DNA of 64,000 bases, taken from Desmonostoc muscorum FACHB-395. Its GTDB lineage: Bacteria > Cyanobacteriota > Cyanobacteriia > Cyanobacteriales > Nostocaceae. Both the position numbers and the translations under genes were made by a program. The DNA lies in the NCBI RefSeq assembly GCF_014698035.1, contig NZ_JACJSF010000028.1, positions 1 through 64,000 on the forward strand. The letters are read 5' to 3'. Within the stretch, counting starts at the first letter, position 1. Every line of letters begins with the position of its first letter. Below, piece after piece: positions 30,374 to 42,536 of this stretch. The notes under the pieces are model-generated. The model had not been told where the DNA came from. It saw nothing but the letters and a program-made list of their open reading frames with translations, and ran no database searches.

Positions 30374-31855
30374 ATGGTAAATGCTGCTCAAGCCCGTCAG
30401 ACAAAAGAGCGATTCGCCCAACCAGAGGAACAACTCACTTATGAATTAGGGAAGGCGGTACAGGAATTACCACCCCTGTATACGAGATTATTAGCGGGAA
30501 CGATGAGCGCCATTGTATTTGGAGCGATCGCTTGGGCGTACTTCTCGCAAATAGATGAAGTAGCAACAGCGCCAGGGGAATTAATTGCTTCTACACAGGT
30601 TAGGCCAGTGACATCCTTGGGTGGGGGGTCAATTGTCGGCGTGAAAGTGCAAGAAGGCGATCGCGTCACCAAAGGTCAAATTCTGATTCAAAAAGACCCT
30701 GACTTACAAATAACTGATGTTTCCCGCCTAGCCAAATCAACTAGATTGATTCAAGACGATTTGCAACGTTTGGATGCAGAACGTCTTGGAGGCAAAACAA
30801 CTGGGACTAAACTACAAGATGAACTTTTAACTTCCCGCCTGCAAGACTACCAAGCGCGTCAAGCAGGAGCAGAAGCAGAAGCAAATCGCCAAATAGCACT
30901 CATCAATCAAGCCAAAGTCCGCTTGACTCGATTGCAAGAGAACTTAGCTAATGCCAAAAGCAGCTTTGCTAATGCCAAAACCAACCTTGCCAACGCAGAC
31001 AGCATCCGCATTAAAATTGAAAGTAATTTGGCACTTGCACAAGAAAGGGAAAAAAGCTTACGCACCCTAATTACTACTGGTGCTGTACCTCGTGTCGATT
31101 ACTTGGATGCTCAAGAAAGATTGACTCGTGCAAAGACAGAAATTACCAGATCGCAAGATGAAGTGACTAACGCCCAAAATAGAATAACAGAGGCTCAAGA
31201 TAAAGTCACATCATTAGAAAAAGATATTGCTGCTCAAGCCCAAGAAATTCGCCAAGCAGAACAAGCTTACAACGCTGCCCGCAGTCAGGCCCAGCGTGTC
31301 GCATCAGAACGCCAAAGTGAAATATTGACACAGTTCAACAAACGTAAAGAAGAACTGACAACTGTTCAAGGTCAATTAGAGCAGGCGAGGAAGCAGCAAG
31401 CTTTAGAAACGATTGAGGCTCCCGTTGCAGGTACGATTTACAGAGTCAAAGCCACTAAGGGGCCAGTCCAATCTGGTGAAGAATTGCTGTCAATTTTGCC
31501 AGAAGGCGAAGAAATGCTTCTAGAGGTGAAAGTTCTTAACCGCGATATTGGGTTTATTCGTCAAGGCATGAAGGCAAAAGTGAAAATGGCGACTTTCCCC
31601 TTCCAGGAATTTGGCGTTGTGGAGGGCGAAGTCATGCAAGTCAGTCCGAATGCAATTATTGATAAAGAATTGGGTTTAGTTTTTCCTACAAGAATTAAGC
31701 TAAATAAACATTCAGTGAATGTTCGTGGTCAAGAGGTAGAATTTACACCAGGAATGTCTGCTACAGGTGAAATTGTCACTCGTAAAAAGTCAATTCTGAC
31801 ATTCATCACTGAGCCTGTGACGCGGCGGTTCAATGAAGCATTTTCTGTTAGGTAG
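30374..31855 (+). CDS. HlyD-type membrane-fusion adaptor of a type I secretion system
   Basis: A 493-residue periplasmic adaptor. A short cytoplasmic N-terminus is followed by one membrane span (LLAGTMSAIVFGAIAWAYF, about residues 39-57). The split biotinyl-lipoyl motif is SLGGGSIVGVKVQEGDRVTKGQILIQKDP (about 82-110) plus AGTIYRVKATKGPVQSGEELL. Between them is a long coiled-coil hairpin (about 130-345), rich in Gln, Ala and Glu. The beta-barrel region RQGMKAKVKMATFPFQEFGVVEGEV closes the protein. It would link the ABC exporter at 37.9-40.6 kb to an outer-membrane TolC-like channel, which is not in the window. Ends with a hairpin terminator. Confidence 0.9.
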   Translation: MVNAAQARQTKERFAQPEEQLTYELGKAVQELPPLYTRLLAGTMSAIVFGAIAWAYFSQIDEVATAPGELIASTQVRPVTSLGGGSIVGVKVQEGDRVTKGQILIQKDPDLQITDVSRLAKSTRLIQDDLQRLDAERLGGKTTGTKLQDELLTSRLQDYQARQAGAEAEANRQIALINQAKVRLTRLQENLANAKSSFANAKTNLANADSIRIKIESNLALAQEREKSLRTLITTGAVPRVDYLDAQERLTRAKTEITRSQDEVTNAQNRITEAQDKVTSLEKDIAAQAQEIRQAEQAYNAARSQAQRVASERQSEILTQFNKRKEELTTVQGQLEQARKQQALETIEAPVAGTIYRVKATKGPVQSGEELLSILPEGEEMLLEVKVLNRDIGFIRQGMKAKVKMATFPFQEFGVVEGEVMQVSPNAIIDKELGLVFPTRIKLNKHSVNVRGQEVEFTPGMSATGEIVTRKKSILTFITEPVTRRFNEAFSVR

Positions 31856-31930
31856 ATTGATAGCCTCTCTTGTTCTTATAGCTATTTCAAAAACAATGCC
31901 TACGCATTCCACAAGCCACACCTAAAACGT

Positions 31931-31955
31931 AAGGGTTTAGCATTGCTAAACCCTT
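31931..31955 (+). terminator. Terminator after the HlyD gene
   Basis: aagggtttagc - att - gctaaaccctt, an 11-bp perfect stem followed by aaatttatttg, 75 bp past the HlyD stop codon. Confidence 0.75.
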
Positions 31956-32037
31956 AAATTTATTTGTAACAGACGAGCGGTTTGGTTTATTTTTCTAACC
32001 GAGCAGTATTTGACTGAACTACAAATCGCTATAATTT

Positions 32038-33924
32038 TTAAGCGATACCTAAGAATTTTTTATACTGATCCATTTGTTTTTGCATCCCTTCTAGTAGTTT
32101 CCAAAAATCAAGATTATTCTCATTTTTGTTATCATCATTGCTATCCGTATTGATGCCTGTAATAATCTGACCGATGAGAGAAGCGACATCAGAATTATTA
32201 AGAATAGCAATAGTCTCTGGTGTGAGATATTTTGGTGTTTCTGTAATTGCCTGACCAATTAGAGAACCAACATCAGAATTATTCAAACTAGCAATAGTCT
32301 CTGGCGTGAGATAATTTGCTGTTTCTGTAACAGTCTGACCAATTAGAGAACCGACATCAGAATTATTCAAACTAGCAATAGTCTCTGGCGTGAGATAATT
32401 TGCTGTTTCTGTAACAGTCTGACCAATTAGAGAACCGACATCAGAATTATTAAAACTAGTAATAGTCTCTGGTGTGAGATATTTTGCTGTTTTTGTAATA
32501 GTCTGACCGATTAGAGAAGCGACATCGGAATTATTAAAACTAGCAATAGTCTCTGGTGTGAGATAATTTTTGGTTTGTGCATCGATATGTAGCAGGTTGT
32601 CGCCAGACATCACTTGCTTTGCCAGAGAACTGACATTAGAAATATTTAAACTAGAGATTGTAATTTGTGAACTATTTGCTGCTGTGTCTGCGTAGCCCGT
32701 CGTAGACATCACTTGCTTTGCTAAAGAACTAACATTAGAAATATTTAAACTAGAGTTTGTACTTTGTGTGCTATTTGCTGATGTTTCTGCCACAATCTGA
32801 CGTACTTGGGCATCAGTCAAGCTGGGGTTAGCACTAAGCATCAGGGCAACTACACCAGCCACATGGGGAGTAGCCATAGATGTGCCGCTATAAGTGGCAT
32901 ACTGATTATTCGGAACTGATGAATAAACCTTGACTCCTGGGGCTGTGACATAAGAAATTTGATTTGTTCCAGAGCGGTTAGAGAAATCAGCCATATTATT
33001 ATTTTTGTCTACTGCCCCAACAGCAATTCCCGACTTGGAGGCATAGCGGGCAGGATAGTCTGGTTCTGATTCACCATCATTACCTGCTGCCATGACGATA
33101 ATCACTCCTTTACTACTGGCATAGTTAATGGCTGACTCCAGAGTCCGATTGGAAGATGTGCCTCCTAAACTGAGGTTAATCACATTCGCTCCATTATCCA
33201 CAGCGTAGCGAATACCCTTAGATATCGAGCTATAGGAACCAGAGCCAGACTCATTCAAAACTTTGACAGGCATAATTTTGGCATCATAAGCAATACCAGT
33301 GACACCATAGTTATTATTTTCTCCTGCGATCGTGCCAGAAACATGAGTACCGTGACCATTGTTATCTAGCGTGTTGTTGTTTTGATCCGCAAAGTTCCAG
33401 CCGTAATTATCATCAATATAGCCATTGCCATCATCATCTATACCGTTACCTGCAATTTCCTTGGTATTCGTCCAGATATTATTTTTTAAATCCTCGTGGT
33501 TATAGTCAACCCCAGTATCTATAACAGCGACAACAACGCCTTTACCTGTGTATCCTTGTGCCCAAACTTCTGGTGCTTTAACAAGGTCTGCTCCCCAATT
33601 ATTACCACCAAGATCGGGAACATCAGCAAAGGTATTCTGATTAGTAGCTTTAGCCACTGCTGCTGCTGCATTAATTAAGCCATAGCCATTGGTGGAGTTA
33701 TAACTTTGCGTCGTAAAAGCATTAGTCGTAGCGTTACTGCTATTTTCGTAGTTACTATTATTTAGTAACTGCACATGAGAATCAGCTGAGTTGTAGCTAC
33801 TACGTCTGCTTAAGTTGAGGCTGGTGTCATTCTTAGTATTAAATGTATCCAATGAAGAGATTGAAGTAGAATTTAAGCTTTTATTAGTAGAAAATAAATT
33901 GTTATTAGTATTATCATTGAGCAT
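32038..33924 (-). CDS. S8 family serine protease (subtilase) with C-terminal 28-residue repeats
   Basis: A 628-residue protein from the ATG at 33922-33924 (MLNDNTNNNLF); the open frame extends 22 codons further, with an unlikely leader. A Ser/Asn-rich N-terminus (1-80) has no signal peptide. The catalytic domain has Asp136 (VAVIDTGVDYNHED), His191 (NGHGTHVSGTIAG) and Ser349 (SGTSMATPHVAG). Next come two copies of SSLNISNVSSLAKQVM (about 391-440) and five 28-residue repeats (about 454-591) of the form YLTPETIxxxNNSDVxSLIGQ. The Asp/Asn-rich tail ending in an amphipathic stretch resembles type I secretion signals. Likely exported by the neighbouring HlyD/ABC system; substrate unknown. Confidence 0.9.
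   Translation of the reverse strand: MLNDNTNNNLFSTNKSLNSTSISSLDTFNTKNDTSLNLSRRSSYNSADSHVQLLNNSNYENSSNATTNAFTTQSYNSTNGYGLINAAAAVAKATNQNTFADVPDLGGNNWGADLVKAPEVWAQGYTGKGVVVAVIDTGVDYNHEDLKNNIWTNTKEIAGNGIDDDGNGYIDDNYGWNFADQNNNTLDNNGHGTHVSGTIAGENNNYGVTGIAYDAKIMPVKVLNESGSGSYSSISKGIRYAVDNGANVINLSLGGTSSNRTLESAINYASSKGVIIVMAAGNDGESEPDYPARYASKSGIAVGAVDKNNNMADFSNRSGTNQISYVTAPGVKVYSSVPNNQYATYSGTSMATPHVAGVVALMLSANPSLTDAQVRQIVAETSANSTQSTNSSLNISNVSSLAKQVMSTTGYADTAANSSQITISSLNISNVSSLAKQVMSGDNLLHIDAQTKNYLTPETIASFNNSDVASLIGQTITKTAKYLTPETITSFNNSDVGSLIGQTVTETANYLTPETIASLNNSDVGSLIGQTVTETANYLTPETIASLNNSDVGSLIGQAITETPKYLTPETIAILNNSDVASLIGQIITGINTDSNDDNKNENNLDFWKLLEGMQKQMDQYKKFLGIA
32155..32565 (-). repeat. Five 84-bp in-frame repeats in the subtilase gene
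   Basis: 84-bp units encoding YLTPETIASxNNSDVGSLIGQTVTETAN variants. The second to fourth units are nearly identical at DNA level (for example ctaacgtc-free blocks around 32270-32420), indicating recent expansion or recombinational homogenisation. Confidence 0.85.
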
Positions 33925-34123
33925 AATTGTTTTTTCTAAAAAATAGAAATGCTTTTTAACAGCTAAAATTCTTAGAACTTTTTTTAACAAAAGTTCTAAC
34001 GTGTGAATAAGCCGTATTGTTAATAATTACTATGAAATTTAATAATAAAATGCTAATTCTATTACCAAAAAAATATTATGAGAATAATGCTTTTTGTGAA
34101 TAGCTATTTAGAATACGCTTAAT

Positions 34124-34173
34124 TATAAAAAAAGCGGCAGAATGAGTGGCATTTGCTGCTCATTCTGCCGCTT
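34124..34173 (-). terminator. Terminator after the CARDB-subtilase gene
   Basis: aagcggcagaatgag (34132-34146) pairs perfectly with ctcattctgccgctt (34159-34173). On the minus strand the stem is followed by a run of seven T's, 47 bp past the stop codon of the gene at 34221. A textbook intrinsic terminator. Confidence 0.9.
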
Positions 34174-34220
34174 ATAGAAATTGCATTTTACCTTTGATAA
34201 ACGACACTTAAGGGATGATT

Positions 34221-37200
34221 CTATGCCAAGCTATTTGCTGCTGTCGTTGTGACAATCTGACGCACTTGGGCATCAGTTAAACCTTTCTTAGCACTGAGCA
34301 TCAGCGCAACTACACCCGCAACATGGGGAGCTGCCATAGATGTTCCACTTTCAAAACCATACTTGTTACCCGGAAGTGTCGAATAAATACCAATTCCTAG
34401 ATCCCCATCACCTTCAAAGTATCCTCCAGGAGCTGTAACGTATGTGAGTGGAGTTGTTCCAGCCCGATTGGAGAAGTCGGCTAATGTCCTATCATAGTAG
34501 ACTGCTCCAACAGCAAGTCCCAATTGGTTAGCATAGCGAGCTGGGTAGCTTGGTGCTGACTCACCATCGTTGCCTGATGCTGAGACGACAATTGCCCCTT
34601 TGCTAACAGCATATTGAATTGCTGAGAGTAGCTCATTACTAGCAGGACTTTTTAAACTGAGGTTAATGACGTTAGCTCCATTATCTGCTGCATAACGAAT
34701 TCCATTAGGTATGGCAGTAATATTACTTATGCCATTATCATCAAAAACTCTCACTGGCATAATCTTGGCATTATAAGCAATACCCGTAACACCAAAGTTA
34801 TTTTTTACTGCCGCGATCGTACCAGCAACATGAGTACCATGACCATCTACCAAATCTAGAGTATTGTTATTGTTGCCAACGAAATTCCAGCCGTAGGCAT
34901 CATCAATGTAACCGTTGCCATCATCATCTTTGCCGTTACCAGCGATTTCCTTGGTATTCTTCCAGATATTAGCGTTCAAGTCAGGGTGATTGTAATCCAC
35001 CCCACTATCTACTACAGCGACGATCACACCTTGACCAGTGTATCCTTTTGCCCAGACTTCCGGTGCTTTAATTGCATCGGCTCCCCAATTATCACCATCT
35101 AAGTCAGGAACATCAGCAAAGGTACTCTGACCTAAAGCTTTCGCTACTGCGGCTGCGGCATTAATTAAGCCATAACCTGTAGTTGAGTTAAATCCGCCAC
35201 CATTGACAGGATTTAAGGTAATTGGTGTGGTGATGTAAACGCTGTTGTTACCTTCATTGCTTTCAACAACATTTCCTGGCCCATCGGCTTTAAATATCAG
35301 GTAGTATTTACCAGCACTAATAGTAGGAGCAAGCGTAATAGATGTGGAGCGAGAAGTAACGGCTGAAGGTGCCAGAGTAGAACTAGCCTCAATTTCGGTA
35401 CCTAAGCTGATATCATCATCGTCACCAAATGTTGTGTCTCGTGAAAGATAAAAACTTGTCTTACTCCCTCCAGCACTGCCATTACCTTGGTTTTTAAGTT
35501 GATAATTAACTAGGAATGTAGTACCAATAGCAGCACTACTAGCAGCAGACGTAGCATTTTGTATTACTAAGTCTGGTGCAGTAATTGCGATCGCTTTGGC
35601 AACGACGTTGTTATTTTCATTGCTTTCTCTCAATGACCCAAAACCATCAGCTTGGTATAGGAGATAGTAACTACCGGGAGTAATAGTGCTGGAAAGATAT
35701 AGGGATACAGACTCGGAAATTACAGCAGAGGGAGCAATGTCAGAGATACCGATAATATCCGAACCGACTGAAATGTCCTCACTACTAAGGCTGGTATCTT
35801 TAGAAAGATAAAAGCGTGTCGTGTTAACACCAGCTTTACCATTACCTTGATTTTTCACCTGATAGCTTAGTTGGATTGTTGTACCAATGTTGGCGCTAGC
35901 AGGAGCCGAAGGATTTTGTATTAATAGGTCTGGTGCCGCAATCGTAATTGCTTTGGCCGTAACGTTATTGTTTTCATTACTTTCAAAAATTTCGCCATTG
36001 CCATCGGCTTGTAATAGCAGGTAGTAATTTCCAAAAGTAATATTACTGCTGAGTATTAAATAGTAAGACTCTGAACTATATTTACTAGCGCCTAATCCAG
36101 AGTATAAGTAGCTTCGGGAATAGCTTAAGTATGTGTCATCGCCGCTCAAGGTCGTATCTTTAGAAAGATAAAATTTCGTTGTACTAGAACCAGCACTGGC
36201 AGTACCTTGATTGGCTAGTTGATAATTGACAGTGATTAAGTTACCTGGGTCAACAAGACTAGGAGCCGAAATATTTTGGATAATTAGGTCTGGTTTCGGG
36301 CCGTTAATAGCGATCGCTTTGCTGACAATATTATTAGTTTCGTTACTTTCGCCAACATTGCCATTAGCATCGGCTTTATACAACAAATAATAGTTGCCTG
36401 CGGCGATCGCATTGTTGATGATCAGCGATGCTGTCTCTGAGCTAGTAGCACCTGCGGCAATAGCGTTAACGCCATCGGAGCCGAGCAACACATCATCATT
36501 ACTAAAGGCATTATCCTTGGATATATAAAACTTGGTGGTAGTTGCAACAGCACCACCAACACCTTGATTTTTGACCTGATAACTTAGTTGAATAGTGCTA
36601 CCAACTGATGCTGTACTAGGGGCTGAGGTATTTTGAACTATCAGGTCTGATTTTTGAGTTGGAGTAATGGTGATTACTCCGGCAATACCGTTGTTAGTTT
36701 CATTGCTTTCAGCAACATTCCCATCAGCATCGGCTATATATGCTAAGTAATAATTCCCAGCAGTGATGTTACTGCCAAAACTGAGTGTGGTTGACTCGGA
36801 ACTATAACTACCCGCAGCAATGCCGCTAACGTAGTCATAGCCCAAGTACAAATCTTCGTTTCCGATATTTAAATCTTGGGAGAGATAAAACTTGGTGTTA
36901 CTAGCAACAGCACTGGCATTGCCTTGGTTTTTGATTTGATAGTTTACTTGAATGCTACTTCCAGCCGCCGCCGAACTAGGATTTGAGGTATTTTGTACTA
37001 TCAGGTCTGGTTTAGTAATATTAATTACGTCAGCAACAGCGTTGTTGTTTTCGTTGCTTTCGGCAACATAGTTATAGCCATCGGCTTGATACACCAAATA
37101 ATAGCTACCTGCGGCGACGCTATTGCTGATGGTGAGTGTGGTTGACTCTGACCGATAGTAACCAGATAGGATGTTATCAACATAGTCATCGCCTAAAAAT

Positions 37201-37634
37201 ATATCTTCACTCCCTAAAGAGAGATCCTGAGACAGATAAAACTTGGTATAGCTATAACCAGCACTGGCATTGCCTTGGTTTTCAATTTCATAGCTCAGTT
37301 GAATAGTACTGCCAGCTGCGGCAGAACTGGGAGTTGAAACGGTACGTGCTATTAGGTCTGGCTGAATAGCAGCGATCGCTTGAGTAGTATTTTCGTTGCT
37401 TAAACTACTCTTCTTGGCATAATTGTTTTTAACTCCGAAAGCGTCGATTTCCGTAGAAGTATAACTACTGCGATCGCTGGCTCTAAAACTATTTACACCA
37501 CTCAGACTGAAGCTAGAGTCAGTATTCTGATTATCAAAAATATTAGATTTTTTTGATGATACAAGGCTGGCTTTTACACCAGAATTTTCATTAATAGAGT
37601 TACAGCCTTTGGTAAAAAACATTAGTAGTTTCAC
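34221..37634 (-). CDS. S8 family serine protease with six N-terminal CARDB domains
   Basis: A 1137-residue protein. About 90 polar residues with no signal peptide are followed by six CARDB (cell-adhesion-related, APHP-type) modules at about 92-206, 209-324, 329-443, 448-564, 568-684 and 687-805. Each has the form PDLIxQNxSxPSxAxxGSxIQxxYQxxNQG ... TKFYLSxD ... ESNExNN in outline. The subtilisin domain is C-terminal: Asp876 (VAVVDSGVDYNHPD), His932 (DGHGTHVAGTI), Asn1022 and Ser1099 (ESGTSMAAPHVAG). The linker GYGLINAAAAVAKA and the whole catalytic domain closely match the subtilase at 32038. Probably secreted by the same type I system, with CARDB domains binding surfaces or glycans. Confidence 0.9.
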   Translation of the reverse strand: MKLLMFFTKGCNSINENSGVKASLVSSKKSNIFDNQNTDSSFSLSGVNSFRASDRSSYTSTEIDAFGVKNNYAKKSSLSNENTTQAIAAIQPDLIARTVSTPSSAAAGSTIQLSYEIENQGNASAGYSYTKFYLSQDLSLGSEDIFLGDDYVDNILSGYYRSESTTLTISNSVAAGSYYLVYQADGYNYVAESNENNNAVADVINITKPDLIVQNTSNPSSAAAGSSIQVNYQIKNQGNASAVASNTKFYLSQDLNIGNEDLYLGYDYVSGIAAGSYSSESTTLSFGSNITAGNYYLAYIADADGNVAESNETNNGIAGVITITPTQKSDLIVQNTSAPSTASVGSTIQLSYQVKNQGVGGAVATTTKFYISKDNAFSNDDVLLGSDGVNAIAAGATSSETASLIINNAIAAGNYYLLYKADANGNVGESNETNNIVSKAIAINGPKPDLIIQNISAPSLVDPGNLITVNYQLANQGTASAGSSTTKFYLSKDTTLSGDDTYLSYSRSYLYSGLGASKYSSESYYLILSSNITFGNYYLLLQADGNGEIFESNENNNVTAKAITIAAPDLLIQNPSAPASANIGTTIQLSYQVKNQGNGKAGVNTTRFYLSKDTSLSSEDISVGSDIIGISDIAPSAVISESVSLYLSSTITPGSYYLLYQADGFGSLRESNENNNVVAKAIAITAPDLVIQNATSAASSAAIGTTFLVNYQLKNQGNGSAGGSKTSFYLSRDTTFGDDDDISLGTEIEASSTLAPSAVTSRSTSITLAPTISAGKYYLIFKADGPGNVVESNEGNNSVYITTPITLNPVNGGGFNSTTGYGLINAAAAVAKALGQSTFADVPDLDGDNWGADAIKAPEVWAKGYTGQGVIVAVVDSGVDYNHPDLNANIWKNTKEIAGNGKDDDGNGYIDDAYGWNFVGNNNNTLDLVDGHGTHVAGTIAAVKNNFGVTGIAYNAKIMPVRVFDDNGISNITAIPNGIRYAADNGANVINLSLKSPASNELLSAIQYAVSKGAIVVSASGNDGESAPSYPARYANQLGLAVGAVYYDRTLADFSNRAGTTPLTYVTAPGGYFEGDGDLGIGIYSTLPGNKYGFESGTSMAAPHVAGVVALMLSAKKGLTDAQVRQIVTTTAANSLA

Positions 37635-37806
37635 CTCGTATATTCAAGTAAATTTGCACCAAAAAAAGTACTCAAATCCTTGATATATAAGGGATTGAGC
37701 CGGGAGATATTTCTTTGTAAGACAGGTGCTACAAATACACTTAACTATAAAATCACGTAATTAGCAAGTAAGATTACAGTTTTCTGCATACTTAAGCAAT
37801 TTAAAA

Positions 37807-37833
37807 GGCGAATGGAGTATAACTCCATTCGCC
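37807..37833 (-). terminator. Terminator after the ABC exporter gene
   Basis: ggcgaatggagt - ata - actccattcgcc, a perfect 12-bp stem; on the minus strand it is followed by tttt, 62 bp past the exporter stop codon. It separates the isomerase-exporter operon from the CARDB-protease gene. Confidence 0.85.
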
Positions 37834-37894
37834 AAAGACTATATTTAAGCTGCTTTTCAGGGATCAAATAAACACAAGTTGCTTGTTAAAGCTA

Positions 37895-40594
37895 CTAAAT
37901 ATTTGCTTGCTGCCGTTGATATAGTGACCAATACAAACCCTTTTGTTGCAATAACTCTGAGTGAGTACCACGTTCGGCAATTACGCCTTGTTCTAATACC
38001 AAAATCAAATCGGCACGTTTGAGAGGGGCAAAGCGGTGAGCAATCAGAAACACAGTGCGGTTAGCGGAAACTTTTTGCAAGTTTTGTAGTACTTGTTGTT
38101 CAGTTTCACTATCCAAAGCACTGGTAGCTTCATCCAAAACTAAAATTGGTGCTTGGGAAAGAAATAATCTTGCGAGGGCAATACGTTGTCTTTGTCCGCC
38201 AGATAAAGCTGTACCGCGTTCACCCACATTGGTTTCGTAACCGTAGGGTAATTGACTGATGAAGTCGTGTGCTACTGCTAGTCTTGCCGCCTCTACCACT
38301 TGTTCTGCGGTAATGTCGGGAGTACCGAGAGTGATATTTTCCAATATGGAACCGTTGAATAAAAAGTCTTCTTGGAGAACTACACTAACTTGTTGCCGCA
38401 ATGACGCTAAATCGGCACTTTTAATATCAAAACCATCAATTAAGATGCGTCCTGATTCAATTTGATAAAGGCGTTGTAATAGCTTAGACAGGGTACTTTT
38501 CCCAGAACCGCTACGTCCGACAATGCCAACAAATTGCCCTGGTTCAGCATTGAAAGAGATTCCCCGCAGAATTGCTTCAAAGTTCGGGCGGTAGCGGAAA
38601 AATACTTGCTCGAAGGTGACTTGTCCTTTCAGTGGTGGTAAAACTAGACCAGTTCCTAGTTCAGCTTCTGGGGAGACGTTGAGAATATCACCAATGCGAT
38701 CTACAGAAAGTAGCACTTGTTGGAGGGTCTGCCATAACTGTACTAAGCGCAAAAGTGGGCCCGTAACTCTGCCAGATAGCATTTGAAAGGCAACTAACTG
38801 TCCAATTGTGAGCTTTTGTTCGATGACTAATTTGGCTCCAAACCAGAGAATCAGCATGGTGGAAAAATTGGTGAGGAAGTCACCAATGTTGCTGCTGATA
38901 TTGGAGGTGGTAGAGGCTTTAAAACCTGTGCGGATGAAGCGAGCAAATAAGCCTTCCCAGCGATCGCGGGCTACTGGTTCGGCTGCATGGGCTTTAACGG
39001 AATGAATCCCCGTGATTGTCTCTACTAAAAAGGATTGACTATCGGCACTCCGGTTAAAAGTTTCGTTGAGCCAGTTACGCAGAATTGGTGTTGCAACTAT
39101 CGTCAAAGTCGCAAATAGCGGCAGTACTGCTAAAGCCACAAAGGTGAGTGGGACATTATAGTAAAACATCAATGCTAGGTAAACCACAGCAAAGATGCTA
39201 TCTAGAATCACAGTTAATGCTGTACCTGTGAGGAACTGACGAATTTGTTCGAGTTCCTGGACTCGTGCTACTGTGTCTCCGACGCGCCGCGACTCAAAAT
39301 AAGCTAAAGGCAGGCGCATCAGATGGCGAAATAGCTGTGCTGATAAACTTAAATCCAGACGACGGGCTGTATGGGTAAAGATGAATAGGCGCAGAATGCC
39401 AAGTACGGACTCAAATATGGCTACACAAAGAAGTGCGATCGCCATAACATCAAGAGTCGGCAAACTCCCCTGCACCATTACTTTATCAATAACTACTTGC
39501 GTAATGAGTGGTGTTGTTAACCCCAAAAGCTGCAAGGTAAAAGATGCTAATAATACTTCTGTTAGTAATCCCTTATACTTCCAAACTGCTGGGGTGAACC
39601 AACTAAGGTTAAATGTTTCTTGTTTAGATATGAGTTCTACTTGCCACAATCGTCCATCCCACGATGCCTCAACTATGGATTGCGGTAAGCTTTCACAAAT
39701 GCGATCGGGATTTAGAGGGTTAGCGATAATTAAGCGATCGCCCTTAACTCCATAAGCTACCACCCAGGATGGACTCTGGGGTGAGTCAGAATTCCACAAC
39801 AGTAAAGCTGGAAATGACAGTTGTCGCAACTCACCCCAACTCACTTGTAACCGCCGCAACACTAACCCTAACTTTTCTCCTGCTTCCACAACCTGTTTTG
39901 GGCGTTGTCCTCTGAGTTGACGTTGCACCCATTCCAGTTGCACAGAGTTTTCTAGCTGTTGCGCCACCATTGTTAAACAAGCAGCCGCAGTGTTCCAACT
40001 AGCAACAAATGGATAATTTGAGATGATTAAATTCGCGGCTGGGAGTCGTTTTTGGGGTTGGAGGCTGTGAGGGCTGGAAGTCCCATCTGAGACTGTTACT
40101 GAAGGAGTGGAAGAGAAGGAAAATGTCTCTCTTTCTCCCTCCATATCCACTGGTAAGACTTGCCAAAATTCCTGAATTTGTGGGTTAGAAAATTCTGTCC
40201 ACAGGGCTGTATCCCAACACACTACTATTACTTCTTTGCTAGCAGCTACAGCTTTAAAATCCGCAGACAACTTTTGTAAATCACCAAACCAATCCCCTAC
40301 TTCTAGGGCTGCCAAAGGTTTGCCAACTCCCTCTTCCCGTAAGCGAACTTTTCCAGCCACAATTAAGAATTGGTAACGACCGACATCGTTAGACCAAATT
40401 TTTTCTCCCAAACGATACTGACGAGTTTGACACTCATTTTCCAATTGAGATTGTTGTTCGGGAGTCAGCCAGCATAGCGGCGGCTGATTCCAAGGCAAAG
40501 AAGCTAGCACTTTTAATCGTAAAGATTCATTATCCAGAATTTTTAACTCACTTGTAGCTTGACTGTCAGTTTTTGAATTTTCTCTGCTAGCCAT
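37895..40594 (-). CDS. Type I secretion ABC exporter with cNMP-binding-like and degenerate C39-like domains
   Basis: An 899-residue exporter. Residues about 45-140 resemble a cyclic-nucleotide-binding domain (YQFLIVAGKVRLRE ... LEVGDWFGDL), but the usual phosphate-binding Arg is not evident. Residues about 193-325 are a C39-like peptidase domain in which the catalytic Cys position is Thr202 (NTAAACLTM), the His position is Ser276 (PSWVVAYG) and the Asp position is Asn292, so it should not cleave. Membrane spans cover about 340-600. The ATPase has Walker A GRSGSGKST (693-701), signature LSGGQRQR (798-805), Walker B ILVLDE (817-822) and His853. Its first 52 bp overlap the isomerase gene. It would energise export of the adjacent proteases. 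Confidence 0.93.
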   Translation of the reverse strand: MASRENSKTDSQATSELKILDNESLRLKVLASLPWNQPPLCWLTPEQQSQLENECQTRQYRLGEKIWSNDVGRYQFLIVAGKVRLREEGVGKPLAALEVGDWFGDLQKLSADFKAVAASKEVIVVCWDTALWTEFSNPQIQEFWQVLPVDMEGERETFSFSSTPSVTVSDGTSSPHSLQPQKRLPAANLIISNYPFVASWNTAAACLTMVAQQLENSVQLEWVQRQLRGQRPKQVVEAGEKLGLVLRRLQVSWGELRQLSFPALLLWNSDSPQSPSWVVAYGVKGDRLIIANPLNPDRICESLPQSIVEASWDGRLWQVELISKQETFNLSWFTPAVWKYKGLLTEVLLASFTLQLLGLTTPLITQVVIDKVMVQGSLPTLDVMAIALLCVAIFESVLGILRLFIFTHTARRLDLSLSAQLFRHLMRLPLAYFESRRVGDTVARVQELEQIRQFLTGTALTVILDSIFAVVYLALMFYYNVPLTFVALAVLPLFATLTIVATPILRNWLNETFNRSADSQSFLVETITGIHSVKAHAAEPVARDRWEGLFARFIRTGFKASTTSNISSNIGDFLTNFSTMLILWFGAKLVIEQKLTIGQLVAFQMLSGRVTGPLLRLVQLWQTLQQVLLSVDRIGDILNVSPEAELGTGLVLPPLKGQVTFEQVFFRYRPNFEAILRGISFNAEPGQFVGIVGRSGSGKSTLSKLLQRLYQIESGRILIDGFDIKSADLASLRQQVSVVLQEDFLFNGSILENITLGTPDITAEQVVEAARLAVAHDFISQLPYGYETNVGERGTALSGGQRQRIALARLFLSQAPILVLDEATSALDSETEQQVLQNLQKVSANRTVFLIAHRFAPLKRADLILVLEQGVIAERGTHSELLQQKGLYWSLYQRQQANI

Positions 40595-41325
40595 TTCTCA
40601 AATAACTCATTTTGTAGTGCTTGCTTGAGTTGAGTATCTTCTAAAGACGCTGGCAGAAATTGTTCTACTCGAAACAAACCATAAGGTCCTTCTCCTTGGG
40701 GAGAGTCTTTGCCAACGATTTCTATTGGTCCTATTAATTGTCCAGGACTAGCCACATCAATAGCTGCCCGTAATATATCTGGCATACTTCCTCGGCTGAC
40801 TATTCCCATCATGCCGTTCACAATTCGGTCATCTGAAAGTGAATACTCTTTAGCTAGTTGCTCAAAACTACCTCCTTCTTCAATTTGGGTTTGTAGTTCG
40901 TCTGCCAATTCTCGATTATTAACAACTATCCGAGAAAGTACCACCCGATCCAAAAAGATTTTGCGCTCAATAAAATATTCTTGGATTTTTGCTTCCGTGA
41001 CTACAGCTTTCAGCTTTTCTAACTTGTAACCAAAAGTAACTGATGTATGGAATGCGGCATAATCTGTGTTATTGGTTTTTAACCATTCTTGAAAACTTTG
41101 AGGATCGGTCAGTTGATTTTTCAGTCTAAAGTCAATAATGGACTGTTCGGTTATTGCTGTACCAATTTCAATATCGTCTCGTGTTCGGATTTCTTGCTCA
41201 ATTACGTGCTGGCGGAGAATATCCCCAATGAACTGCCCCAATTTTCCAGAGGCTTGCAGGTACTTTACAGCTTCCTCAATAGAAATTATTTGGTCATTAA
41301 TTGTCAAAAATGATAAAGATTCCAT
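40543..41325 (-). CDS. Parvulin-type peptidyl-prolyl isomerase linked to the exporter
   Basis: A 260-residue protein with a SurA-like helical N-terminal region (about 1-125) and a PpiC/rotamase domain (about 126-230: FLDRVVLSRIVV, then GGSFEQLAKEYSLSDDRIVNGMMGIVSRGSMPDILRAAI and GEGPYGLFRVEQF). There is no signal peptide, so it should act in the cytoplasm, holding or folding a substrate before export. The last 17 codons overlap the ABC exporter gene, indicating coupled translation. A 26-bp stretch spanning its start codon is duplicated about 100 bp upstream. Confidence 0.9.
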   Translation of the reverse strand: MESLSFLTINDQIISIEEAVKYLQASGKLGQFIGDILRQHVIEQEIRTRDDIEIGTAITEQSIIDFRLKNQLTDPQSFQEWLKTNNTDYAAFHTSVTFGYKLEKLKAVVTEAKIQEYFIERKIFLDRVVLSRIVVNNRELADELQTQIEEGGSFEQLAKEYSLSDDRIVNGMMGIVSRGSMPDILRAAIDVASPGQLIGPIEIVGKDSPQGEGPYGLFRVEQFLPASLEDTQLKQALQNELFEKWLAEKIQKLTVKLQVS

Positions 41326-41732: not shown

Positions 41733-42536
41733 CTACTTAATGATATTTACCCAAGTCCAGGAAAGTAGCACAGCCGCGATCGCACCGATTAATGTATTAA
41801 AAATATTTACTACCTCATTGGTCAGCCAGGTATACTTAGATTGCAGTGTTGCCCCAATCACACTTTCTAAGTTAGTGGCAATAAATGCTGCCAGTACACA
41901 CCAAGCGACTCCTAATAGATCGATTAAACCAACTCCCCAACCAACAAATGCGATCGCTACAGAAGCCACAATACCAGCTAAAGTCCCCTCCAAGCTGACC
42001 GCTCCTTCTGTACCGCGAGGCACTGGTTTGAGTGTAGTAATTAGAAAGGTGCTTTTACCATACGCTTTACCAACTTCACTTGCAGTAGTGTCAGCCAGTT
42101 TGGTACTGAAACTTGCTACATAGCCTAGTAATAATAGAGACTGGGGATTGGGAACTAAAGATTGGGAACTAGGTACGAGAAATCCCGAATTTATTATCCC
42201 TACTCCCAAGGCACACAGCGCCCCGGTCAAAGCTGACCCCCAGACATTCTCAGGGCCCCTTGCTCCAGAACGCTTTTCGGCAATTCCTTCAGCCTCTTTC
42301 TGCGCCATACCGATGCGGGTAACACCAGAACCAACCAGAAAATAGAACATTACTACTGTATATCCTTGCCAGCCTAGAGTTACCCAAATTAGGATGGCCA
42401 GAAACCACGCATGAAATGATCCAGCAGGCGTAAGTAGCTTTTTCGGGGCAATCCAAGCTAAACCCAATAGAATTGTGTTTAATACTACTGCCACCAACCA
42501 GGGATTAACAGAATCAATTAAGGATGACATCAGCAA
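41733..42536 (-). CDS. DUF92 / TIGR00297 membrane protein (VTE6-like)
   Basis: A 267-residue polytopic membrane protein with about six to seven hydrophobic segments. The conserved DUF92 core includes FYFLVGSGVTRIG, the EKRSGARGPENVWGSALTGALCA loop, SFSTKLADTTASEVGKAYGK and FITTLKPVPRGTEGAVSLEGTLAG. The family includes plant VTE6 and Synechocystis Sll0875, phytyl-phosphate kinases that recycle chlorophyll phytol into tocopherol, so the same activity is likely. The segment VPSSQSLVPNPQS (about 122-134) is encoded by 'ttcccaatc' repeats and looks like a repeat insertion in a loop. Confidence 0.85.
   Translation of the reverse strand: MLMSSLIDSVNPWLVAVVLNTILLGLAWIAPKKLLTPAGSFHAWFLAILIWVTLGWQGYTVVMFYFLVGSGVTRIGMAQKEAEGIAEKRSGARGPENVWGSALTGALCALGVGIINSGFLVPSSQSLVPNPQSLLLLGYVASFSTKLADTTASEVGKAYGKSTFLITTLKPVPRGTEGAVSLEGTLAGIVASVAIAFVGWGVGLIDLLGVAWCVLAAFIATNLESVIGATLQSKYTWLTNEVVNIFNTLIGAIAAVLLSWTWVNIIK

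What the first reader, a model, noticed from the sequence alone, without database searches (positions are those of the whole stretch)
30374..41325. A compact type I secretion locus with its own prolyl isomerase and two protease cargos
Seen: an HlyD-type adaptor, two large subtilases without signal peptides, an ABC exporter and a parvulin overlapping the exporter gene, with no unrelated genes between. Known: HlyD/ABC pairs export unfolded proteins with uncleaved signals. Inferred: the parvulin keeps the proteases export-competent in the cytoplasm, and the proteases are dedicated cargo. A secretion system with a coupled cytoplasmic isomerase and multi-domain subtilases is not a standard described set.
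Basis: partly seen in the sequence, partly recalled or inferred. Interest (0 to 1): 0.7.

Follow-up and report, generated by a model that had tools for sequence, protein, structure and literature searches.

The report
Cyanobacterial protease exporter with rearranged subtilases
A gene group that probably pumps large proteases out of a filamentous cyanobacterium, listed in 2011 as a peptide-antibiotic cluster, includes subtilases whose usual end segment appears to have moved to the front.

Summary
In detail: HlyD, two subtilases, an HlyB-type ABC exporter and a parvulin at 30374-41325. HlyD is convergent with the rest, so this is not one operon. The gene set is described: Wang 2011 (PMC3140520) lists S8 + SurA + HlyD + long C39 ABC as 'group VI bacteriocin clusters'. 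That label fits badly: in 58 orthologous exporters the C39 Cys is lost in 58, Asp in 58, His in 57, while three paralogs keep all three, and no conserved precursor ORF was found around the parvulin-ABC pair. It reads better as an HlyB-like exporter of large proteins. Subtilases lie at 37 of 57 parvulin-ABC loci and 17 of 40 separate HlyD loci, favouring cargo. The parvulin's usual His is Arg in 58 of 58, so chaperone rather than isomerase. Two points I did not find in nine paper searches: the window's subtilase family has its domain-closing segment before the catalytic Asp (37 of 37), apparently a natural circular permutation; and proteases of three peptidase families beside this system share a signal-peptide-free N-terminal module, a candidate export signal. 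Secretion was not tested.

The parts
30374..31855 (+). HlyD-type membrane fusion protein (adaptor)
   Evidence: TIGR01843 275.9 bits, above cut-off 208.65; match in 142 of 145 family genomes at E<=1e-60
32038..33924 (-).
   Evidence: Peptidase_S8 E 1.2e-66; relatives start at the equivalent Met; no signal-peptide-like core
33793..33804 (-). RSSY motif of the N-terminal element shared with linked proteases in relatives
33640..33687 (-). GYGLINAAAAVAKA segment: usual C-terminal end of an S8 domain, here N-terminal (permuted)
   Evidence: block-mean pLDDT 76-92 in the model
32146..32565 (-). Five 28-residue repeats (YLTPETI...) in the C-terminal tail
34221..37634 (-). Larger subtilase: S/N-rich N-terminus with RSSY motif, six CARDB domains, permuted S8 domain at the C-terminus; likely cargo
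35130..35177 (-). Permuted GYG segment of the larger subtilase
37895..40594 (-). HlyB-type ABC exporter with an N-terminal region that is weakly cNMP-binding-like in an ortholog, and a degenerate C39-like domain
   Evidence: TIGR01846 784.7 bits; best solved relative HlyB, 598 bits
39650..40003 (-). C39-like domain with the catalytic Cys, His and Asp positions replaced
40543..41325 (-). SurA/PrsA-like parvulin protein without a signal-like segment
40543..40594 (-). 52-nt overlap of the parvulin and ABC genes
   Evidence: 54 of 57 loci

Best explanation
A type I secretion system conserved in Nostocaceae, with relatives in some other filamentous cyanobacteria, that exports large proteases. The HlyB-type ABC protein with a dead C39 domain and the HlyD adaptor, with a TolC-type channel encoded elsewhere, form the conduit. 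The parvulin protein, whose gene overlaps the ABC gene, acts in the cytoplasm as a SurA/PrsA-like holding chaperone, probably without isomerase activity. Cargo is recruited unfolded; the most likely address label is the N-terminal element common to the linked proteases (a PPC domain with GRSSF, reduced to a short S/N-rich stretch with RSSY in the window's subtilases). The window's subtilases are permuted: the segment that closes the subtilisin fold is at the front and must meet the end of the domain for the fold to close. Shown: genes, families, lost active-site residues, linkage, permuted order in sequence. Inferred: export, chaperoning, signal function, site of folding.
For: HlyB and HlyD models above cut-offs; HlyB is the best solved relative at 598.4 bits against 341.6 for the best 'ABC-type bacteriocin transporter' entry. 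C39 positions in 58 orthologs: Cys replaced in 58, Asp in 58, His in 57, while paralogs L092, L098 and L103 keep all three; PMC8277102 passages tie dead C39-like domains to large uncleaved cargo. No conserved GG-precursor-like small ORF around parvulin-ABC. S8 at 37 of 57 parvulin-ABC loci and 17 of 40 separate HlyD loci; 68 of 142 HlyD orthologs have one of the 150 listed S8 matches within 12 kb. Calpain- and clostripain-family proteases with a related N-terminal module near HlyD. Of genes that match the module from position 1, 18 of 23 lie within 20 kb of the parvulin or HlyD ortholog; without the 5 that seeded the model, 13 of 18. TolC-type proteins elsewhere in the genome.
Against: 20 of 57 parvulin-ABC loci and 23 of 40 separate HlyD loci have no S8 in the stretch fetched, so cargo need not be local or need not be S8. 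Outside Nostocaceae 0 of 12 loci have S8, and only 6 of 12 show the ABC gene beside the parvulin. There the C39 Cys is lost in 6 of 6, but His stays in 3 and Asp in 4. RSS[FYL] is strictly present in only 33 of 58 S8 ORFs; counting all module genes, 32 of 54 lie away from this system. Cargo of C39-like exporters usually has RTX repeats and a C-terminal signal; no RTX family was hit here. Many window-type subtilases end in a similar charged tail that could be a C-terminal signal. No secretion data.
Confidence: 0.58

Rival explanations
1. A bacteriocin cluster (Wang group VI): the ABC protein cleaves double-glycine leaders and the subtilases trim precursors.
For: The same gene composition was so named; a paralog in the same genome (L092) has an intact C39 domain.
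Against: C39 Cys and Asp lost in 58 of 58 orthologs, His in 57; NHLM exporter models below cut-off; no conserved precursor-like small ORF around parvulin-ABC (ATG starts only, HlyD side not searched); the paper lists only 2 precursors, both DUF37, for 6 group VI clusters.
Confidence: 0.1
2. The exporter's main cargo is encoded elsewhere (for example giant repeat or PPC proteins); the subtilases act outside on that cargo and leave the cell by this or another route.
For: 20 of 57 loci lack S8; a 2306-aa cadherin-repeat protein with the N-terminal PPC module adjoins the ABC gene in L270.
Against: Two S8 types and two other protease families gather at one or both halves of the system.
Confidence: 0.2
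3. The export signal is the C-terminal tail of the subtilases, as in HlyA, and the N-terminal element is only a PPC remnant.
For: Many window-type subtilases end in a similar charged tail; signals of C39-like exporters are usually C-terminal.
Against: The other linked S8 type has only 18-30 residues from its GYG motif to its end; the window's larger subtilase ends with its catalytic domain.
Confidence: 0.3

Closest known systems
Group VI 'bacteriocin' gene clusters (Wang, Fewer, Sivonen 2011, PMC3140520; Micallef 2015, PMC4558948)
   Same: S8 peptidase, SurA/rotamase, HlyD and long-type C39 ABC with N-terminal CAP_ED; found mostly in filamentous diazotrophs
   Different: The C39 site is dead and no precursor was found here, so the bacteriocin role is doubtful; identity with the published locus is inferred from composition, not compared by sequence
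E. coli HlyB/HlyD/TolC type I secretion
   Same: HlyB-type ABC with C39-like domain, HlyD adaptor, channel encoded elsewhere
   Different: Linked putative cargo without RTX repeats; extra N-terminal region in the ABC protein; overlapping SurA-like gene; adaptor often unlinked
PrsA / SurA parvulin chaperones
   Same: Sequence match over the helical part and the parvulin domain
   Different: No signal-like segment; the conserved His is Arg
Subtilisin BPN' and deseasin MCP-01 (S8A)
   Different: The C-terminal closing segment lies N-terminal (circular permutation)

Membership tests
Type I secretion system (HlyB/HlyD class) | HlyB-type ABC and HlyD adaptor | tested here: met
   TIGR01846 and TIGR01843 above cut-offs
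Type I secretion system (HlyB/HlyD class) | TolC-type outer membrane factor available | tested here: met
   Two ORFs with paired OEP matches elsewhere in the genome (C112, C237); no channel gene in the locus. Which one is used is unknown
Type I secretion system (HlyB/HlyD class) | Degenerate C39-like domain | tested here: met
   Cys lost in 58 of 58 orthologs
Type I secretion system (HlyB/HlyD class) | RTX-repeat cargo | tested here: not met
   No RTX family among Pfam hits at E<=0.01 of the two window subtilases or of eight linked proteases
Type I secretion system (HlyB/HlyD class) | Exporter-dependent secretion of the cargo | not testable with these tools
   needs mutants
C39 bacteriocin exporter cluster (group VI) | S8 + SurA + HlyD + long ABC | tested here: met
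   the CAP_ED part is only weakly seen, in ortholog L049
C39 bacteriocin exporter cluster (group VI) | Intact C39 active site | tested here: not met
C39 bacteriocin exporter cluster (group VI) | Double-glycine precursor gene | tested here: inconclusive
   583 ATG-started small ORFs around parvulin-ABC in up to 58 loci; only two families span more than 5 loci, the VOC gene and a 48-aa ORF whose example has no GG. The HlyD side and other starts were not searched
NHLM bacteriocin export (TIGR03796/03797) | Model cut-off | tested here: not met
   438.7 vs 853.3 and 421 vs 709.4
Parvulin prolyl isomerase | Parvulin domain | tested here: met
   PF00639 32.7 bits, cut-off 21.7
Parvulin prolyl isomerase | Conserved His of SHI (catalytic role recalled) | tested here: not met
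   SRI, invariant in 58 orthologs
Parvulin prolyl isomerase | Isomerase activity | not testable with these tools
   needs an assay
Subtilase S8 | Asp/His/Ser triad | tested here: met
   D136, H191 and S349 invariant in the 55-sequence alignment
Subtilase S8 | Canonical order of the domain | tested here: not met
   Closing segment 55-56 residues before Asp in 37 of 37

The most novel reading that the evidence does not exclude
A distinct type I secretion branch of filamentous cyanobacteria in which a dead-C39 exporter and an isomerase-dead cytoplasmic parvulin recognise an N-terminal, not C-terminal, module shared by exoproteases of three peptidase families, with naturally circularly permuted subtilases as a main Nostocaceae cargo, the permutation perhaps helping to delay folding until after export.
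Probability: 0.28. Interest if true: 0.72.

Novelty: new variant of a known kind. Interest (0 to 1): 0.5.

Why it matters
If true it would move part of a 'bacteriocin cluster' annotation to protein secretion, give these cyanobacteria a dedicated protease exporter with a testable N-terminal signal (signals of such exporters are usually C-terminal), and supply a natural circular permutation of one of the best-studied enzymes, subtilisin.

Tried and rejected
Bacteriocin reading: tested by C39 residues and by a small-ORF search; rejected as the main reading. Active isomerase: weakened. One operon: rejected; HlyD is convergent and within 25 kb of the parvulin in only 39 of 142 genomes (draft contigs may hide some). 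Parvulin model: poor (mean pLDDT 56.7, pTM 0.46), so its matches to SurA/PrsA (rmsd about 16-22 over the full length) count little beyond the parvulin domain. In VIA-align alignments to 275-residue subtilisins stop at about residue 259, as permutation predicts; that those last residues hold the matching motif is recalled. A pattern search within 90 aa after the Ser found the motif in only 9 of 21 canonical S8, although the motif starts 18-30 residues from the end in 21 of 21; for the window type the Ser pattern itself matched 35 of 37, and a search from GTS to the end of the protein found the motif in 0 of 37. One match from another phylum, L224, starts as early as query residue 12, but no GYG pattern was found in it. 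Motif control: the looser [RHKG]SS[FYL] is in 45 of 58 S8 and in 29 of 1029 other ORFs of 200 aa or more. Literature searches: no listing pointed to a natural subtilase permutation in cyanobacteria or an N-terminal PPC export signal, but only open-licence PMC papers are covered and most hits were seen as listings only. Anabaena exoproteome passages list proteases Alr1381 and Alr0996; not matched to this family by sequence. cNMP-binding domain: not found in the window ABC at E<=1, weak in ortholog L049 (2.1e-4, below cut-off). PMC3482391 was opened for one search hit and did not bear on this (passages).

Full report
Observation. The parvulin gene overlaps the ABC gene by 52 nt. HlyD is on the + strand, convergent with the smaller subtilase; the other four are on the - strand in the order parvulin, ABC, larger subtilase, smaller subtilase. 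The window lies in a 9.4-Mb genome. Nostoc sp. UCD121 (L159) has the same five genes in the same layout, so the source is probably a Nostoc (inference).

Conservation. The parvulin has a match in 144 of 145 family genomes at E<=1e-10; in 143 of them the best match is at 66% identity or more, while G024 has only a weak one and the 54%-complete G135 none. In a phylum-wide draw 43 of 292 genomes match at E<=1e-60, 32 of them in the same family. I fetched 57 orthologous parvulin-ABC loci (six from the window's genus; some stretches shorter than 19.5 kb) and three paralog loci of the own genome. The 52-nt overlap recurs in 54 of 57. A subtilase is present in 37 of 57: the window's type in 17, another type in 21, both in one. 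HlyD is present in 11 of 57. The other type is about 25-33% identical and lies on the far side of the DUF92 gene in 19 of 21 cases. HlyD orthologs exist in 142 of 145 genomes but lie within 25 kb of the parvulin in only 39 of 142. At 40 HlyD loci fetched from genomes where it lies apart, 17 have a subtilase. From about 9 S8 matches per genome roughly 2.4% per locus would be expected; the binomial figures printed ignore shared descent and are not used. Subtilases therefore accompany both halves of the system, also when the halves are apart. Some loci repeat genomes already sampled (L163 and L164 have the contig lengths of G142 and G134), so they are not independent.

What is known. Wang et al. 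2011 (PMC3140520; section 5 read whole, passages) divided 145 cyanobacterial 'bacteriocin' clusters into seven groups. Group VI, six clusters, is defined by an S8 peptidase and is said to occur mostly in filamentous diazotrophs; HlyD is in every group, and SurA and the long-type C39 ABC transporter in groups I, II and VI. Micallef et al. 2015 (PMC4558948, passages) report further group VI clusters.

Why not a bacteriocin exporter. In 58 orthologs the Cys position of the C39 site is Thr (55), Ser (2) or Ala (1), the Asp position is Asn (58), and the His position is Ser, Thr, Asn, Gly or Gln in 57 and His in one, L090. Paralogs L092 (own genome), L098 and L103 keep Cys, His and Asp; a further own-genome paralog, L093, has lost all three. 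In six exporters outside the family the Cys is lost in six, His is kept in three (L271, L272, L274) and Asp in four (these and L270), so loss of the Cys is the common feature. HlyB is the closest solved protein. PMC8277102 (passages) states that active C39 domains go with small leader peptides and C39-like domains with large RTX cargo, and that HlyB itself lost the Cys. Around the parvulin-ABC pair no conserved small ORF of precursor type was found, with the limits given in Membership tests.

The parvulin. It resembles PrsA and SurA by sequence (best E 7.3e-8) and shows no signal-like segment. PrsA's SHI aligns with SRI, and this Arg is invariant in 58 orthologs. Isomerase activity is thus doubtful; a holding chaperone is more likely. 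SecB serving HasA export is a precedent for a cytoplasmic helper (passage).

Permutation. The 21 other-type subtilases carry a GYG-type motif 18-30 residues from the C-terminus, as S8 domains usually do. A profile of that segment finds its best match in all 37 window-type proteins 55 or 56 residues before the catalytic Asp. Of these, 34 score above the best non-S8 ORF (3.1 bits; 2296 ORFs searched, 58 of them S8); the lowest three, 0.5-0.9 bits, do not. None of the 37 has the motif between GTS and its end. The same spacing is seen in named loci, Oscillatoriales and Microcoleus among them (L212, L216, L217), while matches from other phyla start at query residue 28 or later, L224 excepted. The model (mean pLDDT 75.2) gives this part block means of 76-92, and subtilisins of 275 residues align to model residues from about 105 to 387 only up to about residue 259. 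Triad residues are invariant. I read this as circular permutation.

Shared N-terminal module. RSS[FYL] occurs in the first 130 residues of 44 of 1087 ORFs of 200 aa or more: 33 are S8 (of 58; 20 window-type, 13 other-type), 5 are non-S8 with a PPC domain, 6 look unrelated. The five PPC proteins lie within about 5 kb of HlyD: four of the calpain family (L101, L116, L117, L132; L116 and L117 are from one genus) and one of the clostripain family (L112). A model of this module in 25 genomes gave 54 genes, 22 within 20 kb of the parvulin or HlyD ortholog and 32 not. Of the 23 that match from position 1, 18 are near and 5 far; without the five seeds, 13 of 18 are near. In the window only the short motif remains, in both subtilases, and the own genome's four module matches are all in one gene on another contig. 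The signal role is inference.

Mechanism. Most likely: the parvulin holds newly made protease, the C39-like domain receives it by the N-terminal element, ABC-HlyD-TolC carries it out unfolded, and the subtilisin fold closes outside when the front segment meets the end of the domain. Only the anatomy and the linkage are shown.

Noticed in passing
L281 2-17641 (own genome contig C198), beside L093: A very large ORF (5880 aa in the stretch read; 8169-aa open frame) with PPC matches lies next to a parvulin-ABC-HlyD paralog whose C39 site is also degenerate.
   Followed up: partly
window 32146-32565: Five 28-residue repeats in the tail of the smaller subtilase.
   Followed up: no
L116 13173-14936, L117 4204-6006, L132 12974-15073, L101 10986-12833, L112 10599-12095: Calpain- and clostripain-family proteases with an N-terminal PPC module near the HlyD gene.
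   Followed up: yes
window 41733-42536: A DUF92 membrane protein gene adjoins the parvulin in most of the 57 Nostocaceae loci mapped; role unknown.
   Followed up: no
L270 174-7094: 2306-aa cadherin-repeat protein with the N-terminal PPC module beside the ABC gene in a cyanobacterium outside the family.
   Followed up: partly
L098 3487-6564, L103 3460-6684: Paralogous ABC exporters with intact C39 sites a few kb from the HlyD ortholog of this system.
   Followed up: partly
ABC orthologs, residue after the C39 His position: Trp in 58 of 58 orthologs where the four paralogs have Tyr.
   Followed up: no
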